Shown here: in pieces, positions 8,531 through 17,706 of the stretch
Position numbering within the stretch: position 1 is the first letter of the stretch
Layout: the number at the start of each line of letters is the position of its first letter
NCBI GenBank assembly: GCA_017619975.1
Contig: JAFZRH010000019.1
Coordinates: 1-43,068, forward strand
Source of the DNA: Lachnospiraceae bacterium
Lineage (GTDB): Bacteria > Bacillota > Clostridia > Lachnospirales > Lachnospiraceae
Reading direction: 5' to 3'
DNA: 43,068 nucleotides
Made by a program: the position numbers and the translations under genes
The notes under the pieces: model-generated
The model's database searches: none
Told to the model about the DNA's origin: nothing
Seen by the model: the letters and a program-made list of their open reading frames with translations, nothing else

Positions 8531-8681
8531 AAGATCCCTCGCTGACGCTCGGGATGACACAGGAGGAATGCCCGGAATGACATGGGCCGTGTCATCCTGA
8601 ACGCAGGCCGAGACGGTAAAAGATTCGTACCGTGTCATCCTGAGCGAAGCTGCGAAGCAGCGAAGTCGAAGGATCTTTCAT
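8531..8681. repeat. Interspersed palindromic repeat cluster (GTCATCCTGAGC type)
   Basis: Non-coding DNA after the spermidine-synthase-like gene. It holds three related units: GATCCCTCGCTGACGCTCGG then GATGACAC (8534-8560); GTGTCATCCTGAACGCAGG (8589-8607); and GTGTCATCCTGAGCGAAGC, running into GTCGAAGGATCTTT (8632-8678). The same motif occurs inverted at 15019-15091. Such units are scattered between genes in many bacteria. They can fold into hairpins and may end or stabilise transcripts. Confidence 0.75.
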
Positions 8682-8734: not shown

Positions 8735-8781
8735 TGTTACATTTTTCTTTGGATTACGACGGTATAAATAAAAGTACTTTT
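8735..8781 (+). promoter_or_regulatory. ECF-type promoter P1 with downstream palindrome
   Basis: TGTTACA (8735-8741), 13 nt, TACGAC (8755-8760), 10 nt, then the palindrome AAAGTACTTT (8771-8780). The same parts at the same spacing precede the serpin gene at 9826 and the sigma gene at 11500. The GTTACA/CGAC pair resembles promoters read by ECF sigma factors rather than SigA. Confidence 0.7.
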
Positions 8782-8808: not shown

Positions 8809-9639
8809 ATGAAAAAACCGCTTGTCATGGCATTGATTATGGGAATCATTATAGGTACGTCCCTGTCCGCCTCTGCACAGACGGAAACAGCAAGGATCCC
8901 GCAGGAAGTACAGGAATATGCAGAAGGGAAGGCTTTCGAACAATTCCTGAATGCCGCTCCGGTTCTGGGCTTTCCGGAGACAGTAAAGTTTTCTGAACTT
9001 GTTTTAGGGGAAGGCTTTCCGGTCTATCGCATCAAGGGAGATCTGTCTTCCGACAAGCTGGAAGAACTCCTGATTGAACCGGAAAAGTGGACGTATTTTA
9101 TTGTGCTGCCGAATGGGGATACTCTCGCACAAATTGAAGTGTTCAGATCGATACAGGGGGACCTCACTTCATCCGGAGGCGGTATTACAGCAAAATACGG
9201 CGAATGTGTCAATAAAATGCGGGAACTGATACGGAAATCCAACGGAGAGGGAGATCTGAAGCTTATTTCATATGGCGGCGGTTCTCAGCAGTTGCTGTAC
9301 TATTCTTTTAACGGAGATGAAAGGGTTCTGGATTTCAGCATGGTAATTTATTCTGATATCAAGTTGGATGACATTACCGATTACCGTCAGCTTCCGACCG
9401 GCCGGGAAGCCATACAGGGACTGAAAAATGCACAGGAATATATCCGCCAGGAGAAGGAGAAGAACGGCGGGCAGGAGCTGTACGGCGGTACGGATCTGCA
9501 GCTTTCTCTCCATGAATACACGCCGGCTCCGAATAACAGTTGGATCATTGTCGCTGTGGCGGCTCCGCTGCTGGTTGTTGGGGCACTTTTCCTTTGGGGA
9601 AGAAAGAAAAAAGCAGGTACTGCATCCGTGAAGGCATAA
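8809..9639 (+). CDS. Exported, C-terminally anchored protein of unknown function in the ECF regulon
   Basis: The ATG at 8809 has an AAAGGGGG site; a longer reading from 8734 would run through the promoter and is rejected. The 276-residue product has a signal peptide (1-23, cleavage after ASA likely), an outer domain of about 215 residues, and a C-terminal helix (about 244-262) followed by GRKKKAG, so it should be anchored in the membrane facing out. There is no LPXTG motif. I recognise no domain. The outer part contains WTYFIVLPNGDTLAQIEVF and a Gly-Gly rich turn, suggesting a beta-rich fold. It has the same promoter module as the two serpin units, which suggests a part in the same envelope response. 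It ends just before a terminator. Confidence 0.75.
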   Translation: MKKPLVMALIMGIIIGTSLSASAQTETARIPQEVQEYAEGKAFEQFLNAAPVLGFPETVKFSELVLGEGFPVYRIKGDLSSDKLEELLIEPEKWTYFIVLPNGDTLAQIEVFRSIQGDLTSSGGGITAKYGECVNKMRELIRKSNGEGDLKLISYGGGSQQLLYYSFNGDERVLDFSMVIYSDIKLDDITDYRQLPTGREAIQGLKNAQEYIRQEKEKNGGQELYGGTDLQLSLHEYTPAPNNSWIIVAVAAPLLVVGALFLWGRKKKAGTASVKA

Positions 9640-9668: not shown

Positions 9669-9703
9669 CGGGTCGGAAATGGATACTTTCCGGCCCGCTT
9701 TTT
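9669..9703 (+). terminator. Intrinsic terminator after the exported protein
   Basis: An 11-bp stem (9669-9679 with 9687-9697, one G-U pair) with a 7-nt loop is followed by CTTTTT. It ends the first unit only 9 nt before promoter P2 begins. Confidence 0.8.
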
Positions 9704-9711
9704 CAACTTTC

Positions 9712-9757
9712 TGTTACATTCCCTTCCGGTTTACGACTGCATAGGTGAAAGCGCTTT
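9712..9757 (+). promoter_or_regulatory. ECF-type promoter P2 with downstream palindrome
   Basis: TGTTACA (9712-9718), 13 nt, TACGAC (9732-9737), 10 nt, palindrome AAAGCGCTTT (9748-9757). The leader that follows shares the 19-nt block GCCGCGTGAACGTGACGGG (9771-9789) with the leader of the sigma operon. Confidence 0.75.
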
Positions 9758-9825: not shown

Positions 9826-11313
9826 ATGAAAAACGATAAATCAATAAATCCATGGATCCGCCGAATCTGCGCGGGCCTGGCGCTGGTGCTGCTGGTAGGC
9901 GGCTCCGTCTGGATGATCAGCCGGCAGAACCGTATAAAGCCGAAAAACGAGGAATCGATTGGCATGACAGAAAAAACTGATAATATCACGGCAAGGGAAC
10001 AGACAGGAACGACAGCAGAAATGCAGCCGGAAAGTCTGGAAGACCCGATCCCGGCGGATCCGGCAGTCAAGGCCGTTCTGCTGGCGGAGCCGGAGTATCC
10101 GGAAGAGTGGGCCTGGAATAAAACATCCGGGCGTAAGGGAGAACTGCCTCCGGGATTTGTCCGCCGCCAGGCGGGCGTGGAGACGGCGGATCTTTTCCGC
10201 AGCTATTTTGCCGACATGATGCTGCTGCTTTTATCGGAGGAGGATCAGCAAAACGCCGTCATGTCTCCGGTTAATATCTTTATGGCGACGGCTATGCTGG
10301 CCGAGGTCACGGGGGGACAGACGCGGCAGGAGATCTTAAATGCGATGGGCGTCGGCAGCCTTTCCGAACTGCGAAAGCAAGCGGCTGCGCTTTGGGGGAT
10401 GTGCTATCGGGACGATGGACAGGAAAAGCTTGTGCTGGGCAATTCCCTCTGGTTATCCAACGGTCTTTCGTACCGGGAGAGCGCGGTCAAAAGTCTGGCG
10501 GAACATTACTATGCCTCCTCCTTCCGGGGACAGATGGGCTCGGAAGAATACGATCAGCTGCTGCGGGAATGGTTGAGTGCCATGACCGGGGACCTGCTGA
10601 AAGAGCAAGCGGCGTCGGAACATCTGGATCCAAACTGCGTACTGGCTTTAGCCGGCACGATTTGGCTGCAGACGAAATGGGCAGATATGAACTGCTTTGA
10701 TCCGGAGCAGACTGCCGATGCCGTTTTCCACGGCGCCAGGGGGGATGAGACGGTTCCTTTCATGCATCAGGAAAGTGCTGCCTGGGAATGCTGGTGCGGA
10801 GAAAATTACAGGATGGTCCGTCTGTCGACAGGACAGGGAGCCGCGATCTTCTTTCTGCCGGATGAAAGTGTCAGCGTGACGGAAATGATGGCTTCCCCCT
10901 CCTTCCGGGAGTATCTGGCCAACAGCAATCAGGGGACGGTGGAAGGAATGTCGGTGATCGAGGCAAAGGTCAACCTGAGCGTTCCGAAGCTGGACATCAA
11001 CGCTACCCAGGATCTGATCGGCAGCATGAAGAAACTGGGTATGGAGAGCTGTTTTGATCCGAAAACAGCAGATTTTTCGCCTTTGCTGGATCTGCCCGGT
11101 ACGCACGTGGATGCGGCAACGCAGAGCTCCCGTCTGATGATGGATGAAGAGGGGATTTCGGCGGCTTCCTATGTACTGATTACGGCGGCCGGATACCCGC
11201 CGGAAGAGGAGATCGAGATCAATATGGTGATCGATCGGCCTTTCTTCCTGCTGGTCACCGGTTACGCTGCCATCCCGCTCTTTGCTGCCGTCGTGAATAC
11301 TATAGAACCGTAA
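9826..11313 (+). CDS. Membrane-anchored serpin, paralog lacking the putative sigma-binding tail
   Basis: The 495-residue product begins with 13 basic residues, then one helix (14-31) and a Glu/Thr-rich linker to about residue 105. The rest is a serpin, a suicide inhibitor of proteases. It shows the serpin core NAVMSPVNIFMATAMLAE followed by GGQTRQEI, the hinge DEEGISAASYV, and the closing block DRPFFLLVTG with LFAAVVNTIEP. Counting from the hinge Gly as in alpha-1-antitrypsin puts the reactive bond near Tyr457-Pro458. Pro after the scissile residue would be unusual, so true inhibition is uncertain. The helix GLALVLLVGGSVWMISRQ is identical to that of the serpin at 12057, but the 35-residue cytosolic tail of that protein is missing. 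ATG follows a GGGGAGA site. It has its own ECF-type promoter and terminator. Confidence 0.9.
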   Translation: MKNDKSINPWIRRICAGLALVLLVGGSVWMISRQNRIKPKNEESIGMTEKTDNITAREQTGTTAEMQPESLEDPIPADPAVKAVLLAEPEYPEEWAWNKTSGRKGELPPGFVRRQAGVETADLFRSYFADMMLLLLSEEDQQNAVMSPVNIFMATAMLAEVTGGQTRQEILNAMGVGSLSELRKQAAALWGMCYRDDGQEKLVLGNSLWLSNGLSYRESAVKSLAEHYYASSFRGQMGSEEYDQLLREWLSAMTGDLLKEQAASEHLDPNCVLALAGTIWLQTKWADMNCFDPEQTADAVFHGARGDETVPFMHQESAAWECWCGENYRMVRLSTGQGAAIFFLPDESVSVTEMMASPSFREYLANSNQGTVEGMSVIEAKVNLSVPKLDINATQDLIGSMKKLGMESCFDPKTADFSPLLDLPGTHVDAATQSSRLMMDEEGISAASYVLITAAGYPPEEEIEINMVIDRPFFLLVTGYAAIPLFAAVVNTIEP

Positions 11314-11387: not shown

Positions 11388-11433
11388 TGTTACAATTTTC
11401 TGCAGAATACGACTTTGTTATTGAAAGCGCTTT
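11388..11433 (+). promoter_or_regulatory. ECF-type promoter P3 of the sigma-serpin operon
   Basis: TGTTACA (11388-11394), 13 nt, TACGAC (11408-11413), 10 nt, palindrome AAAGCGCTTT (11424-11433). The conserved leader block lies at 11446-11464. Its place before a sigma gene suggests the sigma factor drives its own synthesis. Confidence 0.75.
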
Positions 11434-11499
11434 TCTCCGGAGCGCGCCGCGTGAACGTGACGGGGTACGATCCGGGATAAGAACGGGAAGGGGACTTCC

Positions 11500-12060
11500 G
11501 TGGAAGACAGACAGATTACAGAACTGTTCCTGAAAAGGGATGAGGAGGCGATCCGTGCGGCTCAGACCGCTTACGGAGCGTACTGTCTGTCCATTGCCCG
11601 GCGGGTTCTCCGCAATGAAGAAGATGCCGAGGAATGCGTGAACGACATGCTGCTGGCAGCCTGGAACAGCATCCCGCCGAACGAGCCGGAAAATCTGGCA
11701 CATTATCTGGGTCGGATCGTAAGGCGCATCGCGATCGACCGTCTGCGGAAGGAAACCGCTTTAAAACGGGGCGGCAGCGAGGCTCGGGTCGCCCTGGACG
11801 AGCTGGAGGAAATGCTCGCGGCAGCCGGCACGCCGGAAGAACTGCTCGAAAAGAAGGAACTGGCCGCTGCGGTGAGCGGGATACTGAGGAACTTCAAAGA
11901 GGCGGAACGGAACATTTTTATCCGCCGCTACTGGTTCCTGGACACGGAAGCCGAGATCGCGGAGCGCTACGGCATCAGCCGGGGGCAGACCGCCATGATC
12001 CTGTCCCGCGGCCGGAAAAAGCTGGCAGCCGCCCTGAAAAAGAAAGAGTGGATCGAATGA
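11500..12060 (+). CDS. ECF-type RNA polymerase sigma factor
   Basis: The 186-residue protein has the two-domain layout of group IV sigma factors. Region 2 spans about residues 5-90: LFLKRDEEAIRAAQTAYG, then the NEEDAEECVNDMLLAAWN helix and HYLGRIVRRIAIDRLRKE. Region 4 spans about 125-180, with FKEAERNIFIRRYW and a helix-turn-helix EAEIAERYGISRGQTAMIL. It should direct RNA polymerase to a small promoter set; the three TGTTACA/TACGAC modules nearby are the obvious candidates. The start is GTG at 11500, supported by an AAGGGGA site about 6 nt before it. Its stop overlaps the ATG of the membrane serpin gene by 4 nt (ATGA), the usual layout of a sigma and its anti-sigma factor. Confidence 0.92.
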   Translation: MEDRQITELFLKRDEEAIRAAQTAYGAYCLSIARRVLRNEEDAEECVNDMLLAAWNSIPPNEPENLAHYLGRIVRRIAIDRLRKETALKRGGSEARVALDELEEMLAAAGTPEELLEKKELAAAVSGILRNFKEAERNIFIRRYWFLDTEAEIAERYGISRGQTAMILSRGRKKLAAALKKKEWIE

Positions 12061-13709
12061 AAAGCGATAAATTGATGGATGCTATCACGGAAATCGATGA
12101 GGACCTGTTGACGCAGGCCGAAAAAGAACCGACAAAAAAAGAGCGGGCGGCGGCGGGAAGGGTGATCCCGTTTTCTCCCGCCTGGATCCGCCGGGTGTGC
12201 GCGGGGCTGGCTCTCGTGCTGCTGGTAGGCGGTTCGGTCTGGATGATCAGCCGGCAGAGTACTGTGCGGCAGGGGAGCGAAGAAACAACGGCCCCGTGGA
12301 CGGAAACGGTCGGCGTGATCACCGGAGGAGAGACCCAAACAAAGACGGAGATTGATCCGTCCGGAGTCATCGCCTTCGGAGGCAATGATCTGGCAGGATC
12401 CGAAACATCGGAATCAGCGGAGACTTCTGCTCTCGGAGCAACGGAGGGAGGTACGTCGGCAGGTTCGGAGGATCCGGCATGGAAGGAGGCTGCACTGGTC
12501 CGGTTCGAATACCCGGAGGAATGGCCTTTTGATGAAAGGTATGGCGGGATCATGCCGAGGCTCATCCGGACGACAGCCGGCAAAGAGACGGCAGACCTGT
12601 ACCGCAGCTTTTTTGCGGATATCATCCTGAAGCTTCTGTCCGACAATGAGCAGGATAATTCCGTTATGTCACCGGTCAATGTTTTTATGGCTGCCGCCAT
12701 GCTGGCGGAGATCAGTGGCGGAGAAACGCAACAGGAGGTCTTAGACACGCTGGGGGTCGGCAGCCTTTCCGACCTCAGGGACCAGGCAAAAAAGCTCTGG
12801 GGGCTCTGCTACCGGGATGACGGACAGGAAAAGCTCGTTCTGGGCAACTCCGTCTGGCTTTCCGATGCGCTGACTTACCGGGAAGATTCCGTAAAACAGC
12901 TGGCGGAATCGTACTATGCATCTGCTTTCCGGGGCGAAATGGGCTCGGAGGCCTACAATACGCTGTTCCGCAGCTGGCTCAACGAGATGACAGGAGGCCT
13001 TCTGAAAGAACAGGTGGAATCGATGTGCCTTCAGCCCTTTGTAACGTTTGCCCTGATCAGTTCGATCTGTCTGGAAACACACTGGACCGCGCCGTTTGAC
13101 ACGAAGGAAACAAAATATGAGGTATTCCACGCTGCGCAGGGTGAGCAGACCGCCCTCTTTATGAACCAGAAAGAGGCGGCGCGGTATTATGTCTGCGGCG
13201 AGAACTATCGGATGATACGACTGCAGACGTATCAGGGCTATGTCTGGCTCTTCCTGCCGGACGAGGGCGTAAGCGTGGCCGACATGATGCAGACGGAAAG
13301 CTTTCGGGACTGGCTCGCCCACACGAATCGGGATGATTTCGAAGGGCTTGAGACCGTGTCGGGGTCCATCAACGTCAGTGTTCCGAAGCTGGATATCGAT
13401 GCGTCGCTGGATCTGATCGACAGTCTGACGGCGCTGGAGATCCGGAATGCTTTTGATCCGGGGAAAGCGGATCTTTCGCCGCTTCTGGGCGGATCCGGCG
13501 GGTGCATCGATTCTGCTGAGCAGAAATCCCGCCTGGTGATGGATGAAAACGGGGTGGAAGCGGCTTCGGTCGTTGCGATGTCGATGGCAGCCGCAGCGCC
13601 GCAGGCCCCGGAGTTCGACTTCGTTCTGGACCGGCCGTTCTTCCTGCTGGTCACCGGCCCCGAGTCCGTTCCGCTCTTTGCCGCGGTGGTCAACAGCATA
13701 GAACCGTGA
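12057..13709 (+). CDS. Putative anti-sigma factor with an extracellular serpin domain
   Basis: The ATG at 12057 overlaps the sigma stop by 4 nt. The 550-residue protein opens with a 46-residue cytosolic tail (MKSDKLMDAITEIDEDLL, then a charged segment). Tails of this look often accompany ECF sigma genes in Clostridia, though I know no structure for them. One helix (about 47-65) leads to an Ser/Thr/Glu/Gly-rich linker (66-140) and a full serpin domain: NSVMSPVNVFMAAAMLAE, GGETQQEV, LDIDASLDLIDSL, the hinge DENGVEAASVV, and DRPFFLLVTG with LFAAVVNSIEP. Counting from the hinge places the reactive bond near Ala513-Ala514, a choice that would suit elastase-like proteases. I infer that the tail holds the sigma factor and the serpin senses outside proteases. 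The serpin call is firm; the anti-sigma role is inferred from order, overlap and topology. Confidence 0.88.
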   Translation: MKSDKLMDAITEIDEDLLTQAEKEPTKKERAAAGRVIPFSPAWIRRVCAGLALVLLVGGSVWMISRQSTVRQGSEETTAPWTETVGVITGGETQTKTEIDPSGVIAFGGNDLAGSETSESAETSALGATEGGTSAGSEDPAWKEAALVRFEYPEEWPFDERYGGIMPRLIRTTAGKETADLYRSFFADIILKLLSDNEQDNSVMSPVNVFMAAAMLAEISGGETQQEVLDTLGVGSLSDLRDQAKKLWGLCYRDDGQEKLVLGNSVWLSDALTYREDSVKQLAESYYASAFRGEMGSEAYNTLFRSWLNEMTGGLLKEQVESMCLQPFVTFALISSICLETHWTAPFDTKETKYEVFHAAQGEQTALFMNQKEAARYYVCGENYRMIRLQTYQGYVWLFLPDEGVSVADMMQTESFRDWLAHTNRDDFEGLETVSGSINVSVPKLDIDASLDLIDSLTALEIRNAFDPGKADLSPLLGGSGGCIDSAEQKSRLVMDENGVEAASVVAMSMAAAAPQAPEFDFVLDRPFFLLVTGPESVPLFAAVVNSIEP

Positions 13710-13727
13710 AAAGCCTAGGAGAAAATC

Positions 13728-14987
13728 ATGCGTAAAATATTCAGTATATTGCTTATCCTTACCCTCCTGATCTGCCTGTCTGCGGGCTGCGGCGCGTCTG
13801 AAAACGGGACGGATCCGGCGTCGAAGACGCCTGTGACGACCCAGCAGGATCAGCCGGGGGAGACCGTGCCCGGCACCTCGGAAACCGAGCCAAAGCAGAT
13901 CGCCGAGATCCTGGATAAAGACGGCAAGCTTCTCGCCCGGATCGACGGACGGGCGAACGCCAGCGCGGCGGATGCCGGCATCTTTTACAGCATCTTCGTG
14001 CAGGGAGAATACGAATTTACCGCCACGGCGCAGTACCGCTTCTTCCGCCTGTCAGACGGGAAGGATTTCCTTTTAGGCACGCTGGAGGATCAGGGCTACG
14101 AGGCCGTCTATGCCCGCACAGAACTGGACGGGATCGTCTATGCGCTGGCGCTGACCGGCAATCCTTTTGATTCCGCGCCGGATGCGCTCTGGCTGCTGGC
14201 CTTCGATCCGGTGCGCGGGACCATGAACAAGATCCGCGTTTCCGAAAACCCCTCCCCCTACGCGGCCATGACGGCGGCAGACGGCAAGGTGCTGGTCATG
14301 GTCCACGAGCTGGGTGCGCCGAAGCGCGACTTGGTCTTCGAATTCGATGCCGCCTCCGGCGCGCTGAAGGAGGTCCTGTCCTTTTCTTCCGAAGGCAGCC
14401 GCTGCGAATCCCTGCGCGGGGTATATGCGGACGGAGAGAAGCTGTACCTGCTGAGGCTTTTAGTGGAAGGCGGCAATCCGGAGGAACTGGTTCTTGACGT
14501 CTATGACGGCGCGTACGGGAAGCTCTCCGAGCGTCCTTTAAGCGAACTTATCTTTTCGGAAGACTATGCCGGGATCACCTCGCCGGGCGATGAAAAAGCG
14601 GAGCTCGGCATGATCGTGAGCGGCTTCGCCGTCCGGGAAGGCCGGTATCTGTACTATGAAAACTTCGGCGTCACGCGGGCACTGCTGGATCTTGAGACCG
14701 GCCGGAACCTGTTTGCGAAAGACGATAACTACGCCCTCTCGGTCGGCGGGGGGAAGAAGCTGTTTTACTTCTTCGATCTGGGCCAGGCAGAACCGGGACA
14801 GGCCGTGCAGGGGCTTTATGATCTGAAAGACGGGGCTGTCGAAAGGATCGCCATAGCGCCGCCGGACGGACGCGCGATGATCCGCAGCCTCTCGGTCTCT
14901 CCGAACGGGACCCGGCTGATCCGCTTTTCGGACAGGGAGCTGCGCGATCCCGGCACGAACGCGCTCGTGATTTGGACGGAGCCGTAA
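13728..14987 (+). CDS. Lipoprotein of the sigma-serpin operon, beta-propeller-like
   Basis: The gene starts 18 nt after the serpin gene, with an AGGAGA site, so it is the third gene of the operon. The 419-residue product has a lipoprotein signal ending LSAGC (Cys21 lipidated), a Thr/Pro/Glu-rich linker to about residue 60, and then a repetitive beta-rich domain. Units such as YFFDLGQAEPG, GVYADGEKLYLLRLL, MTAADGKVLVMV and SVSPNGTRLIRF recall the blades of a WD40-like propeller. No catalytic motif is visible. It should sit on the outer face of the membrane near the serpin. It might present targets, shield the serpin or receive signals, but sequence does not decide among these. Confidence 0.78.
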   Translation: MRKIFSILLILTLLICLSAGCGASENGTDPASKTPVTTQQDQPGETVPGTSETEPKQIAEILDKDGKLLARIDGRANASAADAGIFYSIFVQGEYEFTATAQYRFFRLSDGKDFLLGTLEDQGYEAVYARTELDGIVYALALTGNPFDSAPDALWLLAFDPVRGTMNKIRVSENPSPYAAMTAADGKVLVMVHELGAPKRDLVFEFDAASGALKEVLSFSSEGSRCESLRGVYADGEKLYLLRLLVEGGNPEELVLDVYDGAYGKLSERPLSELIFSEDYAGITSPGDEKAELGMIVSGFAVREGRYLYYENFGVTRALLDLETGRNLFAKDDNYALSVGGGKKLFYFFDLGQAEPGQAVQGLYDLKDGAVERIAIAPPDGRAMIRSLSVSPNGTRLIRFSDRELRDPGTNALVIWTEP

Positions 14988-15014: not shown

Positions 15015-15092
15015 GAAAAGATCCTTCGACTCGCTTCGCTCGCTCAGGATGACACGTTTTTGCAAGGCGCTTCGCTCGCTCAGGATGACACG
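15015..15092. repeat. Interspersed palindromic repeat, two inverted units
   Basis: Two copies of GCTTCGCTCGCTCAGGATGA, at about 15033-15052 and 15069-15088. The first is preceded by GATCCTTCGACTC. They are the reverse complement of the cluster at 8531-8681, so the family occurs at least twice, in opposite orientation, on the two sides of the sigma-serpin block. Confidence 0.75.
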
Positions 15093-15114
15093 GCCCGTAG
15101 TTTTTAAGAGCTTC

Positions 15115-15199: not shown

Positions 15200-16600
15200 A
15201 TGGAACGGAAAAATGCATGGCTGTCTTATGACAAGAAGCAGAAGAAGGAACTGACGGCACTCTGCGAGAACTACCGGAAGTTCATCAGCAAAGGCAAAAC
15301 GGAGCGCGAATGCGTGGAGCTGGCCGTCGCGGAAGCAAGACAGGCCGGTTATATCAGCCTGGCGGAAGCGAAGGCCCTGGGCCGGAAACTCGTCCCGGGC
15401 GATAAAGTTTACGACGACATCATGGGCAAGAGCCTGGCTCTCTTTACCGTCGGCACCGAGCCCTGGGAGAAGGGCATGAACATCCTGGGTGCCCACATCG
15501 ATTCCCCGCGCCTGGACATCAAGCAGAATCCTTTATATGAAGACACCGATCTGGTGCTGATGGATACGCACTATTACGGCGGCATCAAGAAATATCAGTG
15601 GGTCACCCTGCCGCTGGCCCTGCACGGCGTGGTCGCCAAGAAAGACGGGAGCGTGGTAAAGGTCGCCATCGGTGAGAACCCGAAGGATCCGGTCCTGTGC
15701 ATCACGGATCTGCTGCCGCATCTGGGCGCGAATCAGATGACCAAGCCGGCTGCCAAGGTCGTGGAAGGCGAGGATTTAAACCTCCTGATCGGCGGAGAAA
15801 AGGTCGCGGAAGAGAAGGCCGAAAAGGGCAAGGATCCGAAAGCCAGCGTGATGAAGAACATTAAAGATATTTTACAGAAGACCTACGGCATCGAGGAGGA
15901 AGATTTCCTCTCCGCCGAGCTGGAAGTCGTGCCGGCCGGTGAAGCCCGCGATCTGGGCCTGGACCGCAGCATGATCCTCGGCTACGGCCAGGATGACCGC
16001 ATCTGCGCCTATACCTCCCTCGAAGCGATGCTGAAGGTGGAAGCGCCGAAGCGCACGAGCTGCTGCCTGCTGGTCGATAAGGAGGAGATCGGCTCCGTCG
16101 GCGCGACGGGCATGCACAGCCGCTTCTTCGAGAACACCGTCGCGGAGATGATCGCCCTGACGGAAGACTACTGCGACTTAAAGCTGCGCCGGGCTTTGAC
16201 GAATTCCCGCATGCTTTCCTCCGACGTGAGCGCAGGCCACGATCCGCTTTACCCGAGCGTGGATGAGAAGAAGAACACCGCTTATCTGGGCCGCGGCCTG
16301 GTTTTCAACAAATATACGGGTTCCCGCGGCAAGGACGGCAGCAACGACGCTTCTGCGGAATATCTGGCTTACGTGCGCCGCGTGATGGACGACGCGGGCA
16401 TCTTCTGGCAGACGGCCGAGCTCGGCAAGGTGGATGAAGGCGGCGGCGGGACCATCGCTTACATTGCCGGCAACTACGGCATGAACGTGGTGGACGCGGG
16501 CATTGCGATCCTGAGCATGCACGCGCCGTGGGAGGTCTCCAGCAAGGCCGACATCTTCGAGGCCACGAAGGGCTACGAAGCCTTCCTGAAAGCGGAATAA
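15200..16600 (+). CDS. M18-family metallo-aminopeptidase
   Basis: The 466-residue protein matches M18 aminopeptidases, which form large cytosolic shells and remove acidic or neutral residues from peptide ends. Visible metal-site blocks are GAHIDSPRLDIK (His-X-Asp), DKEEIGSVGATGM (catalytic Glu and metal ligand), SSDVSAGHDPLYP, and KVDEGGGGTIAYIAG near the end. Length is usual for the family. ATG 15200 has a GAGGAG site. The gene has its own promoter and ends facing the M42 gene, with a terminator between. Both enzymes probably work in peptide turnover. Confidence 0.93.
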   Translation: MERKNAWLSYDKKQKKELTALCENYRKFISKGKTERECVELAVAEARQAGYISLAEAKALGRKLVPGDKVYDDIMGKSLALFTVGTEPWEKGMNILGAHIDSPRLDIKQNPLYEDTDLVLMDTHYYGGIKKYQWVTLPLALHGVVAKKDGSVVKVAIGENPKDPVLCITDLLPHLGANQMTKPAAKVVEGEDLNLLIGGEKVAEEKAEKGKDPKASVMKNIKDILQKTYGIEEEDFLSAELEVVPAGEARDLGLDRSMILGYGQDDRICAYTSLEAMLKVEAPKRTSCCLLVDKEEIGSVGATGMHSRFFENTVAEMIALTEDYCDLKLRRALTNSRMLSSDVSAGHDPLYPSVDEKKNTAYLGRGLVFNKYTGSRGKDGSNDASAEYLAYVRRVMDDAGIFWQTAELGKVDEGGGGTIAYIAGNYGMNVVDAGIAILSMHAPWEVSSKADIFEATKGYEAFLKAE

Positions 16601-16668: not shown

Positions 16669-17706
16669 TCAGAACGGCTTTAAATCCATGTCCTCCGTGC
16701 AGCTGACGAAGAATTCCGCCAGCAGATCGATGCAGTCCCGGATATCTTTCAGGGAGCCCACCTCGTTCGGGTTGTGCATGTAGCGCAGCGGGATCGAGAC
16801 CAGGGCAAACGGGACGCCGATCCCGGTCCGGTGCATGGTGTCGCCGTCGGTGCCGGTATGGCCGCCGGCCGCTTCGATCTGAACTGCCATGTTCAGCTTC
16901 TGCGCGCAGGCTTTCAGCAGCTCGTTCAGTTTTTTGTGGATCGACGGATTGTTGCAGAGCACCGGGCCTTTGCCGACGGAGACGTCGCCGTTTTCCGCTT
17001 CGCTGATGCCGCAGTTGTCGGAGGTGTAGGTCACGTCTACCGCGATCGCGATATTCGGCTTCACGCGGGACGCGGAAAAATACGCGCCGTTGCCGGTCGT
17101 TTCTTCGCCGGTCGTCGTAACGGCGTAGCAGCCGACGGCCGCGCCTCTTGCTTTCGCCTTCGCAAGGGCTTCCATCACGATATAGGCGCCGATCCGGTCG
17201 TCCAGTGCGCGGCCGCTGATGCATTCGTTCAAAAGTTCCCTCACGTCGGTGTCGAAGGTTATCGTATTGCCGAGCTCCACATGCTTTAAGGCATCTTCGC
17301 GGTCCTTTGCGCCGATGTCGATCCTGAGATCGGAGACCTTCAGCTCGCTGTTTTTGGCGATTTCTTTGGAACTGGCGACCGCGCCGTACAGGATCCCGTT
17401 CTTTGTATAGACGCGTACCTTGTGGCCGGGATAGGTCGAAGGATAGACGCCGCCGATCCGCTTTACCATCAGCGTTCCGTCGCTGCCGACAGCGCTCACC
17501 ATGAGTCCGATCTCGTCCGCGTGGCCCGCGATCAGCACCTTGAAAGGCGAATCCGGGTTGACGACGGCTGTCACATTGCCCAGTTCATCGACCGTCACGC
17601 GGTCGGCCTTGTCCTGCATATAGTCGAAAAACTTCTTTTCCACTTCCGTTTCACTGCCGGAAACGGAACCGGTCGACAGGACATCAAACAAAAATTCTTT
17701 ATTCAT
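16669..17706 (-). CDS. M42-family aminopeptidase
   Basis: The 345-residue protein has the M42 set of two-metal motifs: AGHADEIG (first His-X-Asp), GRALDDRIGAY (bridging Asp), TTTGEETTGNGA (catalytic Glu and ligand), IAVDVTYT, and AAGGHTGTDGD with the last His. M42 enzymes form tetrahedral 12-mers in the cytosol that trim short peptides; some act as glutamyl aminopeptidases or endoglucanase-like proteins. The ATG at 17706 has a GAAAGGAG site. The flavoprotein gene ends 36 nt upstream on the same strand, so the two may share a transcript. Confidence 0.92.
   Translation of the reverse strand: MNKEFLFDVLSTGSVSGSETEVEKKFFDYMQDKADRVTVDELGNVTAVVNPDSPFKVLIAGHADEIGLMVSAVGSDGTLMVKRIGGVYPSTYPGHKVRVYTKNGILYGAVASSKEIAKNSELKVSDLRIDIGAKDREDALKHVELGNTITFDTDVRELLNECISGRALDDRIGAYIVMEALAKAKARGAAVGCYAVTTTGEETTGNGAYFSASRVKPNIAIAVDVTYTSDNCGISEAENGDVSVGKGPVLCNNPSIHKKLNELLKACAQKLNMAVQIEAAGGHTGTDGDTMHRTGIGVPFALVSIPLRYMHNPNEVGSLKDIRDCIDLLAEFFVSCTEDMDLKPF

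What the first reader, a model, noticed from the sequence alone, without database searches (positions are those of the whole stretch)
11388..14987. ECF sigma factor paired with a membrane serpin in the place of an anti-sigma factor
The sigma gene (11500-12060) overlaps by 4 nt a gene for a single-pass protein with a 46-residue cytosolic tail, one helix, a long linker and an outer serpin domain; a lipoprotein gene follows. Order, overlap and topology are those of a sigma/anti-sigma pair. Serpins change shape once and for good when a protease cuts their reactive loop. Such a fold outside the cell, joined to a sigma-holding tail inside, would be a one-shot protease sensor. I know bacterial serpins as secreted inhibitors, not as anti-sigma sensors. 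The signalling role is inferred.
Basis: partly seen in the sequence, partly recalled or inferred. Interest (0 to 1): 0.92.

Follow-up and report, generated by a model that had tools for sequence, protein, structure and literature searches.

The report
Serpin-headed anti-sigma factor, likely protease sensor
A bacterium carries a gene switch (an ECF sigma factor) whose likely membrane-bound keeper ends, outside the cell, in a serpin, a one-shot protease trap, so the cell may sense attacking proteases by having the trap sprung; the pairing recurs in many related bacteria but has not been tested in the laboratory.

Summary
An ECF sigma gene (11500-12060) overlaps by 4 nt a gene (12057-13709) for a single-pass protein with a 46-residue tail, one helix, a linker and a complete outer serpin domain. 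It recurs: three such pairs in this genome, 61 distinct pairs collected. In 56 of the 61 the tail has one conserved core (consensus LYDAIGMIDDDLIERAE). The same core begins 13 of 29 examined non-serpin ECF neighbours in two genomes, and the 69 partner sigmas form one clade; five serpins with other tails pair with sigmas outside it. Across 54 pairs, tail distance follows the sigma (r 0.67) far more than the serpin fused to it (r 0.16). So the tail is very probably the sigma-binding part and the serpin an exchangeable outer sensor. The only three exact TGTTAC-N14-TACGAC sites in the genome precede this sigma, the neighbouring serpin and one more gene; that second serpin is a paralogue lacking 14 of the 17 core residues. 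Best reading: a protease counterpart of RsiV/lysozyme. That protease attack frees the sigma is inferred. My searches found no paper on a serpin anti-sigma.

The parts
8735..8760 (+). promoter-like site TGTTAC-N14-TACGAC before gene 8812
   Evidence: one of 3 exact matches in the genome
8812..9639 (+). putative regulon member: secreted protein with a C-terminal hydrophobic segment, 275 aa
   Evidence: ORF; no Pfam family over its cut-off; no match in same-genus genome G238, a search without positive control
9669..9697 (+). terminator-like hairpin between gene 8812 and the next promoter
9712..9737 (+). promoter-like site TGTTAC-N14-TACGAC before the orphan membrane serpin
9826..11313 (+). orphan membrane serpin (495 aa): paralogue of the sensor, 55% identical, near-identical helix, lacking the 33 residues (9-41 of the sensor) that hold 14 of the 17 tail-core positions; likely effector
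   Evidence: Pfam serpin 152.9 bits; alignment
11388..11413 (+). promoter-like site TGTTAC-N14-TACGAC before the sigma gene
11500..12060 (+). ECF sigma factor, 186 aa, GTG start
   Evidence: sigma tree
12057..13709 (+). serpin-headed anti-sigma factor (proposed), 550 aa, overlapping the sigma gene by 4 nt
12072..12122 (+). conserved cytosolic tail core, residues 6-22 (LMDAITEIDEDLLTQAE), proposed sigma-binding domain
12195..12251 (+). single membrane helix, about residues 47-65
   Evidence: hydrophobicity; near-identical helix in the orphan
12612..13694 (+). serpin domain, residues 186-546
13551..13631 (+). reactive loop, hinge GVEAASVV, deduced scissile bond Ala513-Ala514 (hinge Gly499 counted as P15)
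   Evidence: P numbering by convention, not tested
13728..14987 (+). lipoprotein-like third gene of the operon; no relative found in the other loci held

Best explanation
The pair is a sigma/anti-sigma switch with a serpin as outer receptor. In the resting cell the tail core holds the ECF sigma at the membrane. When a serine protease (small residues around the deduced scissile bond suggest an elastase-like one) attacks the reactive loop, the serpin is consumed by cleavage and/or covalent trapping. The altered outer part exposes the anti-sigma to site-1 cleavage near the membrane, then to the RseP-type site-2 protease, and the sigma is freed. It transcribes its own operon (resetting the single-use sensor), the neighbouring core-less membrane serpin (more inhibitor) and gene 8812. 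Use of inhibitor thus drives its resupply. Shown in silico: gene pair, topology, conserved tail, modularity, promoter set, one M50 protease. Inferred: tail binds sigma, protease is the signal, loop cutting or complex formation is the trigger, proteolytic release. My odds: tail is a sigma-binding domain 0.9; outer serpin is the receptor for a protease 0.6; the serpin's shape change or trapping is itself the trigger 0.45.
For: Three pairs in the own genome. 24 of 131 serpin domains in the family sample are sigma-linked, 42 of 88 serpins in 41 of 80 GTDB loci (query built from linked serpins); 61 distinct pairs. Tail core in 56 of 61 by my reading; its profile scores above 8 for 13 of 29 non-serpin ECF neighbours, shuffle p 0.0035 or less; among 46 free GTDB serpins only L188 (contig cut 5') and L197's tandem copy carry it, next best 5.5. 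Sigma tree: 56 main-tail serpin sigmas + 13 other tail-bearing sigmas form one clade (98*), all 5 odd-tail serpin sigmas lie outside. Tail-sigma r 0.67 against tail-serpin 0.16; partial 0.66 (0 of 2000 permutations as high) against -0.12; n 54. Three private promoter sites. Orphan paralogue lacks 14 of 17 core positions. One Peptidase_M50. Strict inhibitory-type hinge in 46 of 59 distinct linked loops. Precedent: RsiV is lysozyme receptor, lysozyme inhibitor and anti-sigma in one (PMC5014341, abstract).
Against: No binding, protease or promoter data. The window's hinge (Val at P8) fails the strict inhibitory pattern, as do the other same-genus pairs L004, L006, L056 and L059. The loop is conserved also in unlinked serpins of the clade. 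No AxA site within 24 residues after the window's helix, though 40 of 61 pairs have one against 22.4 in shuffled linkers. The window's exact promoter, matched to 60 other upstream regions, gave no mean excess over shuffles; a broader pattern shaped after that is found before 9 of 61 sigma genes. The permutations ignore shared ancestry. The linked label is only weakly clustered in the serpin tree (19 changes, shuffled mean 22.3).
Confidence: 0.6

Rival explanations
1. The serpin is an effector only: the protein is an anti-sigma whose trigger is something else (envelope stress, level of displayed protein), and the serpin is a surface-tethered inhibitor under the same switch.
For: Many unlinked serpins of the same clade are lipoproteins and share the conserved loop, so tethering alone is common; an orphan membrane serpin sits in the same locus.
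Against: Proteins of this tail class carry different outer parts next to their own sigmas, as expected of sensors; serpins occur on several tail types that look unrelated.
Confidence: 0.22
2. The outer serpin fold has lost protease trapping and binds another ligand or partner protein; the sigma responds to that ligand.
For: Same-genus hinges depart at P8 (window Val, L004 Leu, L056 Ile, L059 Val).
Against: 46 of 59 distinct linked loops keep the strict hinge, 54 a looser one that the window also passes.
Confidence: 0.12
3. The tail is no anti-sigma domain; sigma and serpin are merely co-transcribed.
For: No Pfam or NCBIfam anti-sigma model matches the protein; the tail class has no tested member known to me.
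Against: Tail core shared with non-serpin ECF neighbours and tail-sigma distance correlation, tail type matching sigma clade, loss of the core in the sigma-less paralogue.
Confidence: 0.06

Closest known systems
sigma-V / RsiV (Bacillus subtilis): anti-sigma as lysozyme receptor
   Same: ECF sigma with a membrane anti-sigma whose outer domain binds and inhibits an attacking enzyme, the enzyme being the signal (PMC5014341 and PMC6066255, abstracts).
   Different: Outer domain is a serpin; the expected ligand is a protease; serpins act once and irreversibly (recalled); the tail here has no Pfam match.
SigI / RsgI of Clostridium thermocellum and Acetivibrio cellulolyticus
   Same: Membrane anti-sigma factors with interchangeable outer sensing domains, several per genome (PMC3413522, passages).
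   Different: RsgI outer domains are carbohydrate-related (CBM, GH); here a serpin, and the partner is an ECF sigma.
Bacterial secreted or lipoprotein serpins (siropins, miropin, Bifidobacterium serpin, C. thermocellum serpins)
   Same: Complete serpin domain with reactive loop; several sister sequences in the same clade are lipoproteins.
   Different: Those are discussed as inhibitors in the passages seen (PMC8233489; PMC12484212); none there is joined to a sigma-binding tail.
Class I-III anti-sigma domains (RseA/RsiW, CnrY/NepR, RsbN; classes from PMC8103513, passages)
   Same: A cytosolic part holds the sigma; the tail's small size is nearest to class II (size comparison recalled).
   Different: No His or Cys in the window's tail, so not the zinc form of class I (motif recalled); no Pfam or NCBIfam match to any class.

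Membership tests
ECF sigma factors | sigma-70 regions 2 and 4, over model cut-offs | tested here: met
   Sigma70_r2 43 bits (cut-off 24), Sigma70_r4 27.9 (24.1), TIGR02937 85 (42.9)
Serpins (PF00079) | full-length serpin domain over the gathering score | tested here: met
   170.9 bits against 27, profile 7-368 of 370
Inhibitory serpins | hinge with Gly P15, small P12-P10, Thr P8 (pattern recalled) | tested here: inconclusive
   Window GVEAASVV fails the strict pattern at P8, passes the loose one; 46 of 59 distinct linked loops pass the strict one
Inhibitory serpins | covalent complex with a target protease | not testable with these tools
   needs protein
Membrane anti-sigma factors of ECF sigmas | gene directly downstream of the sigma gene; N-in single helix with cytosolic tail | tested here: met
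Membrane anti-sigma factors of ECF sigmas | tail alike to tails of other ECF-neighbour proteins and tracking the sigma | tested here: met
   those neighbours are themselves untested
Membrane anti-sigma factors of ECF sigmas | tail binds and silences the sigma | not testable with these tools
   structure prediction switched off; bench test needed
Class I zinc anti-sigma domain | His/Cys zinc motif in the tail (recalled) | tested here: not met
   no His or Cys in residues 1-46 (sequence)
RsgI / RsiV anti-sigma families | a Pfam domain other than Serpin in the protein | tested here: not met
   the only Pfam hit of the protein at E up to 1 is Serpin

The most novel reading that the evidence does not exclude
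A spring-loaded transmembrane receptor: the irreversible stressed-to-relaxed change or trapping reaction of a serpin is used as a one-shot signal across a membrane, with the sigma regulon replacing spent sensor and inhibitor. The serpin domain sits on several tail types with their own sigma clades in Clostridia, so the solution arose more than once.
Probability: 0.42. Interest if true: 0.92.

Novelty: new variant of a known kind. Interest (0 to 1): 0.8.

Why it matters
If true, these Clostridia read host or microbial proteases directly through a consumable inhibitor, the protease counterpart of lysozyme sensing by RsiV, and serpins gain a receptor role in bacteria. It also outlines an unannotated class of short anti-sigma tails with exchangeable outer domains, so that further sensors could be read off as new outer domains next to the same tail. 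Records not titled as metagenome bins carry the pair (Flavonifractor sp. AGMB03687, L182; Cuneatibacter sp. NSJ-177, L184), which may make it testable in culture.

Tried and rejected
A first reading of own-genome serpin loci showed only the + strand and was redone. A first script on ECF neighbours assumed oriented loci and crashed; redone with strands and longer stretches. Matching the window's exact promoter to 60 upstream regions gave no mean excess over shuffles (8.17 against 8.10 of 12); a broader pattern, shaped after seeing those hits, gave 9 of 61 against a shuffle mean of 0.3, most 2, and 0 on the other strand: weaker evidence for that reason. The reactive loop as a special sign of sensing was rejected: unlinked serpins of the clade share it. 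Lipoprotein 13728 and gene 8812 as conserved partners were not borne out: no relatives among the ORFs of the loci held up to L253 (many of those loci end about 200 nt after the serpin); gene 8812 has no match in G238 (no positive control). Zinc-type class I tail rejected: no His or Cys. A single origin of the sigma link in the serpin tree was rejected: at least 11 changes forced by starred branches (quick method). L086 and L106 were dropped before the 61 pairs; L007's part of the sensor, L174, L180 and L216 were dropped as duplicates of L005, L050, L068 and L044. The loop counts still include L106; L014 and L229 gave no loop. In some searches I placed the core of L187, L207 and L246 (and that of L229) one residue off; one search repeats both tests with this mended (r 0.63 and 0.06 became 0.67 and 0.16; partial 0.65 and -0.24 became 0.66 and -0.12; still 13 of 29). 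L178, L226 and the five odd-tail pairs are not in that distance test. Of the matches, two near contig starts (G009:C98, G034:C37) and most fragments were not fetched.
Full report
What is there. The window (contig C27 of a 2,124,915-base, 82-contig genome) holds an ECF sigma gene at 11500-12060 and, overlapping it by 4 nt (ATGA), a 550-residue protein at 12057-13709. The protein has 46 residues before its hydrophobic helix, a linker of about 120 residues and a complete serpin domain at residues 186-546 (170.9 bits); by sequence it matches conserpin, tengpin and alpha-1-antitrypsin.

A second membrane serpin, at 9826-11313, lies directly upstream. It is 55% identical (271 of 489 aligned positions) with a near-identical helix, but its tail reads MKNDKSIN followed at once by PWIRR and the helix: residues 9-41 of the sensor are missing, and with them 14 of the 17 positions of the conserved tail core. 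Gene 8812-9639 codes a secreted protein with a C-terminal hydrophobic segment; 13728-14987 is lipoprotein-like. Neither has a Pfam family over its cut-off or a relative among the ORFs of the loci held up to L253.

Promoters. TGTTAC-N14-TACGAC stands before gene 8812 (8735), the orphan serpin (9712) and the sigma gene (11388). These are the only three exact matches in the genome. With one mismatch allowed there are 5 matches, and 8 for the reversed control, so it is the exact sites that stand out. In window shuffles 0 of 100 reach the 4 matches seen at up to 2 mismatches. The pattern was read off the three sites. The stretches before 9826 and 11500 resemble each other beyond the motif, as expected from duplication; the one at 8735 does not. 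A terminator-like hairpin lies at 9669-9697. The likely regulon is three transcripts of one locus.

Recurrence. The own genome has 8 serpin matches; three (C27, C40, C14) are sigma-linked with tail and helix and one (C74) is cut by the contig end. In the family, 91 of 250 genomes have a serpin. I held 118 loci from these (two whole matches near contig starts and most fragments left out). They gave 131 distinct domains of 300 aa or more, 24 with a sigma-type gene directly upstream. L086 has no tail, and L106's partner is an XRE-type helix-turn-helix joined to sigma region 4 without region 2; the other 22 lie in 16 genomes. A GTDB scan with a profile of six linked serpins found 254 relatives and returned the best 80 loci: 88 serpins, 42 sigma-linked in 41 loci; of the 46 free ones 31 look like lipoproteins. 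The query was made from linked serpins, so 42 of 88 is no population rate. Titles of linked loci name Lachnospiraceae, Oscillospiraceae, Flavonifractor, Cuneatibacter, Butyricicoccus, Evtepia and others. Class-wide, 67 of 291 genomes match the profile; of the 29 other-genome loci returned, 3 are sigma-linked (L259 with the main tail; L262 and L263 with another tail), and 15 of the 26 others are flagged as lipoproteins.

The tail. Of 61 distinct pairs, 56 have the same core, mostly from residue 6, by my reading of that listing. A 17-position profile from 48 non-redundant cores has the consensus LYDAIGMIDDDLIERAE. Of the 46 sigma-type matches in the own genome and same-genus G238, 5 are the serpin pairs and I examined the neighbours of 30 more; 29 gave a downstream candidate (L153's is doubtful). 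Of these 29 non-serpin proteins, 13 score above 8 with shuffle p of 0.0035 or less; the gap (8.8 against 7.1) was seen when the line was set. Ten of the 13 were scanned against Pfam and NCBIfam and gave no family. Of the 46 free GTDB serpins only L188, whose contig is cut 5', and the tandem copy in L197 have the core; the next best scores 5.5. Four loci hold a main-tail linked serpin beside an unlinked membrane copy: the window, L044/L216 and L225, whose unlinked copy lacks the core, and L197, whose copy keeps it.

Tail goes with sigma, serpin much less. In a sigma tree of 89 rows the 56 main-tail serpin partners and the 13 other tail-bearing partners form one clade (98*); 14 of 15 no-tail sigmas and all 5 odd-tail serpin partners (L014, L049, L076, L114, L194) lie on the other side of the drawn root (quick method, root at the midpoint). 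L014, L076 and L114 group with the non-serpin L164 and L133; L194 groups with L163, L166, L131, L167 and L135, and by eye its tail resembles those of L131 and L166; L049 is a long branch. In the serpin tree the linked label changes 19 times, at least 11 forced by starred branches; shuffled labels need 22.3 on average and 8 of 500 are as low. For 54 main-tail pairs the tail-tail distance correlates with sigma distance (0.67) and little with the distance of the serpin in the same polypeptide (0.16); partial values 0.66 (0 of 2000 permutations as high) and -0.12 (which mends a placement slip). Permutations do not remove shared ancestry, but the contrast within one protein is hard to explain unless the tail is fitted to the sigma.

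Reactive loop. 46 of 59 distinct linked loops have the strict inhibitory-type hinge and 54 a looser one; the window (GVEAASVV) passes only the looser one. In 38 of 56 linked loops P2, P1 and P1' are all small, against 61 of 130 free ones; the window has Ala-Ala at the deduced scissile bond. Unlinked serpins of the same clade share the motif. Elastase-like specificity is an inference from small residues.

Mechanism. The best-supported explanation is an anti-sigma with a serpin receptor, on the logic of RsiV, which binds lysozyme, inhibits it and becomes sensitive to signal peptidase (PMC5014341 and PMC6066255, abstracts). The genome has one M50 site-2 protease. AxA sites within 24 residues after the helix occur in 40 of 61 pairs against 22.4 in shuffled linkers, but not in the window. 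All dynamic steps are inferred.

Known or new. Library searches for serpin with anti-sigma, ECF, ECF sigma, or sigma factor + membrane-anchored list no paper whose title or shown abstract concerns a serpin joined to a sigma-binding tail. Of their hits I read passages of four: PMC10059941, PMC3413522, PMC12484212 and PMC3990059, where the two words belong to different topics; the others I saw only in the listing. Subscription papers are mostly, and bioRxiv preprints wholly, outside the library. PMC8233489 (passages) classes some prokaryotic serpins as membrane anchored; the word sigma does not occur in it. Hence: a new variant of a known kind, a membrane anti-sigma with a sensor not described before as far as I could search.

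Noticed in passing
L106 (G039:C153:23211-26451): A tail-bearing membrane serpin is paired with an XRE-type helix-turn-helix protein joined to sigma region 4, without region 2; this hints that the tail acts on region 4.
   Followed up: partly
L156-L162, L128, L141, L151, L170, L172, L173: An unannotated class of ECF-neighbour proteins with the same tail core and other outer parts; ten of the 13 were scanned and have no Pfam or NCBIfam family.
   Followed up: partly
L014 (G096:C6:60658-64737): Odd-tail sigma-linked serpin followed in the same protein by what look like leucine-rich repeats (by eye).
   Followed up: no
L062 (G089:C51:1-7864): Five serpin genes in tandem within 8 kb, forming a divergent clade with L060.
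   Followed up: no
L262, L263 (G422:C16, G484:C22): Sigma-linked serpins in another family of the class with a further cytosolic tail; start codon and sigma clade not worked out.
   Followed up: partly
G238:C4:19013-22588 (L172, L105): A serpin gene lies downstream of a non-serpin tail-bearing protein and its sigma on the same strand, perhaps as a target.
   Followed up: no
window 8630-8680 and 15015-15095: Similar CATCCTGAGCGAAG-type sequence on both sides of the locus, by eye.
   Followed up: no
window 15200-16600 (+) and 16669-17706 (-): Two aminopeptidase-like genes (M18-like and M42-like by recall, not searched) beside the locus.
   Followed up: no
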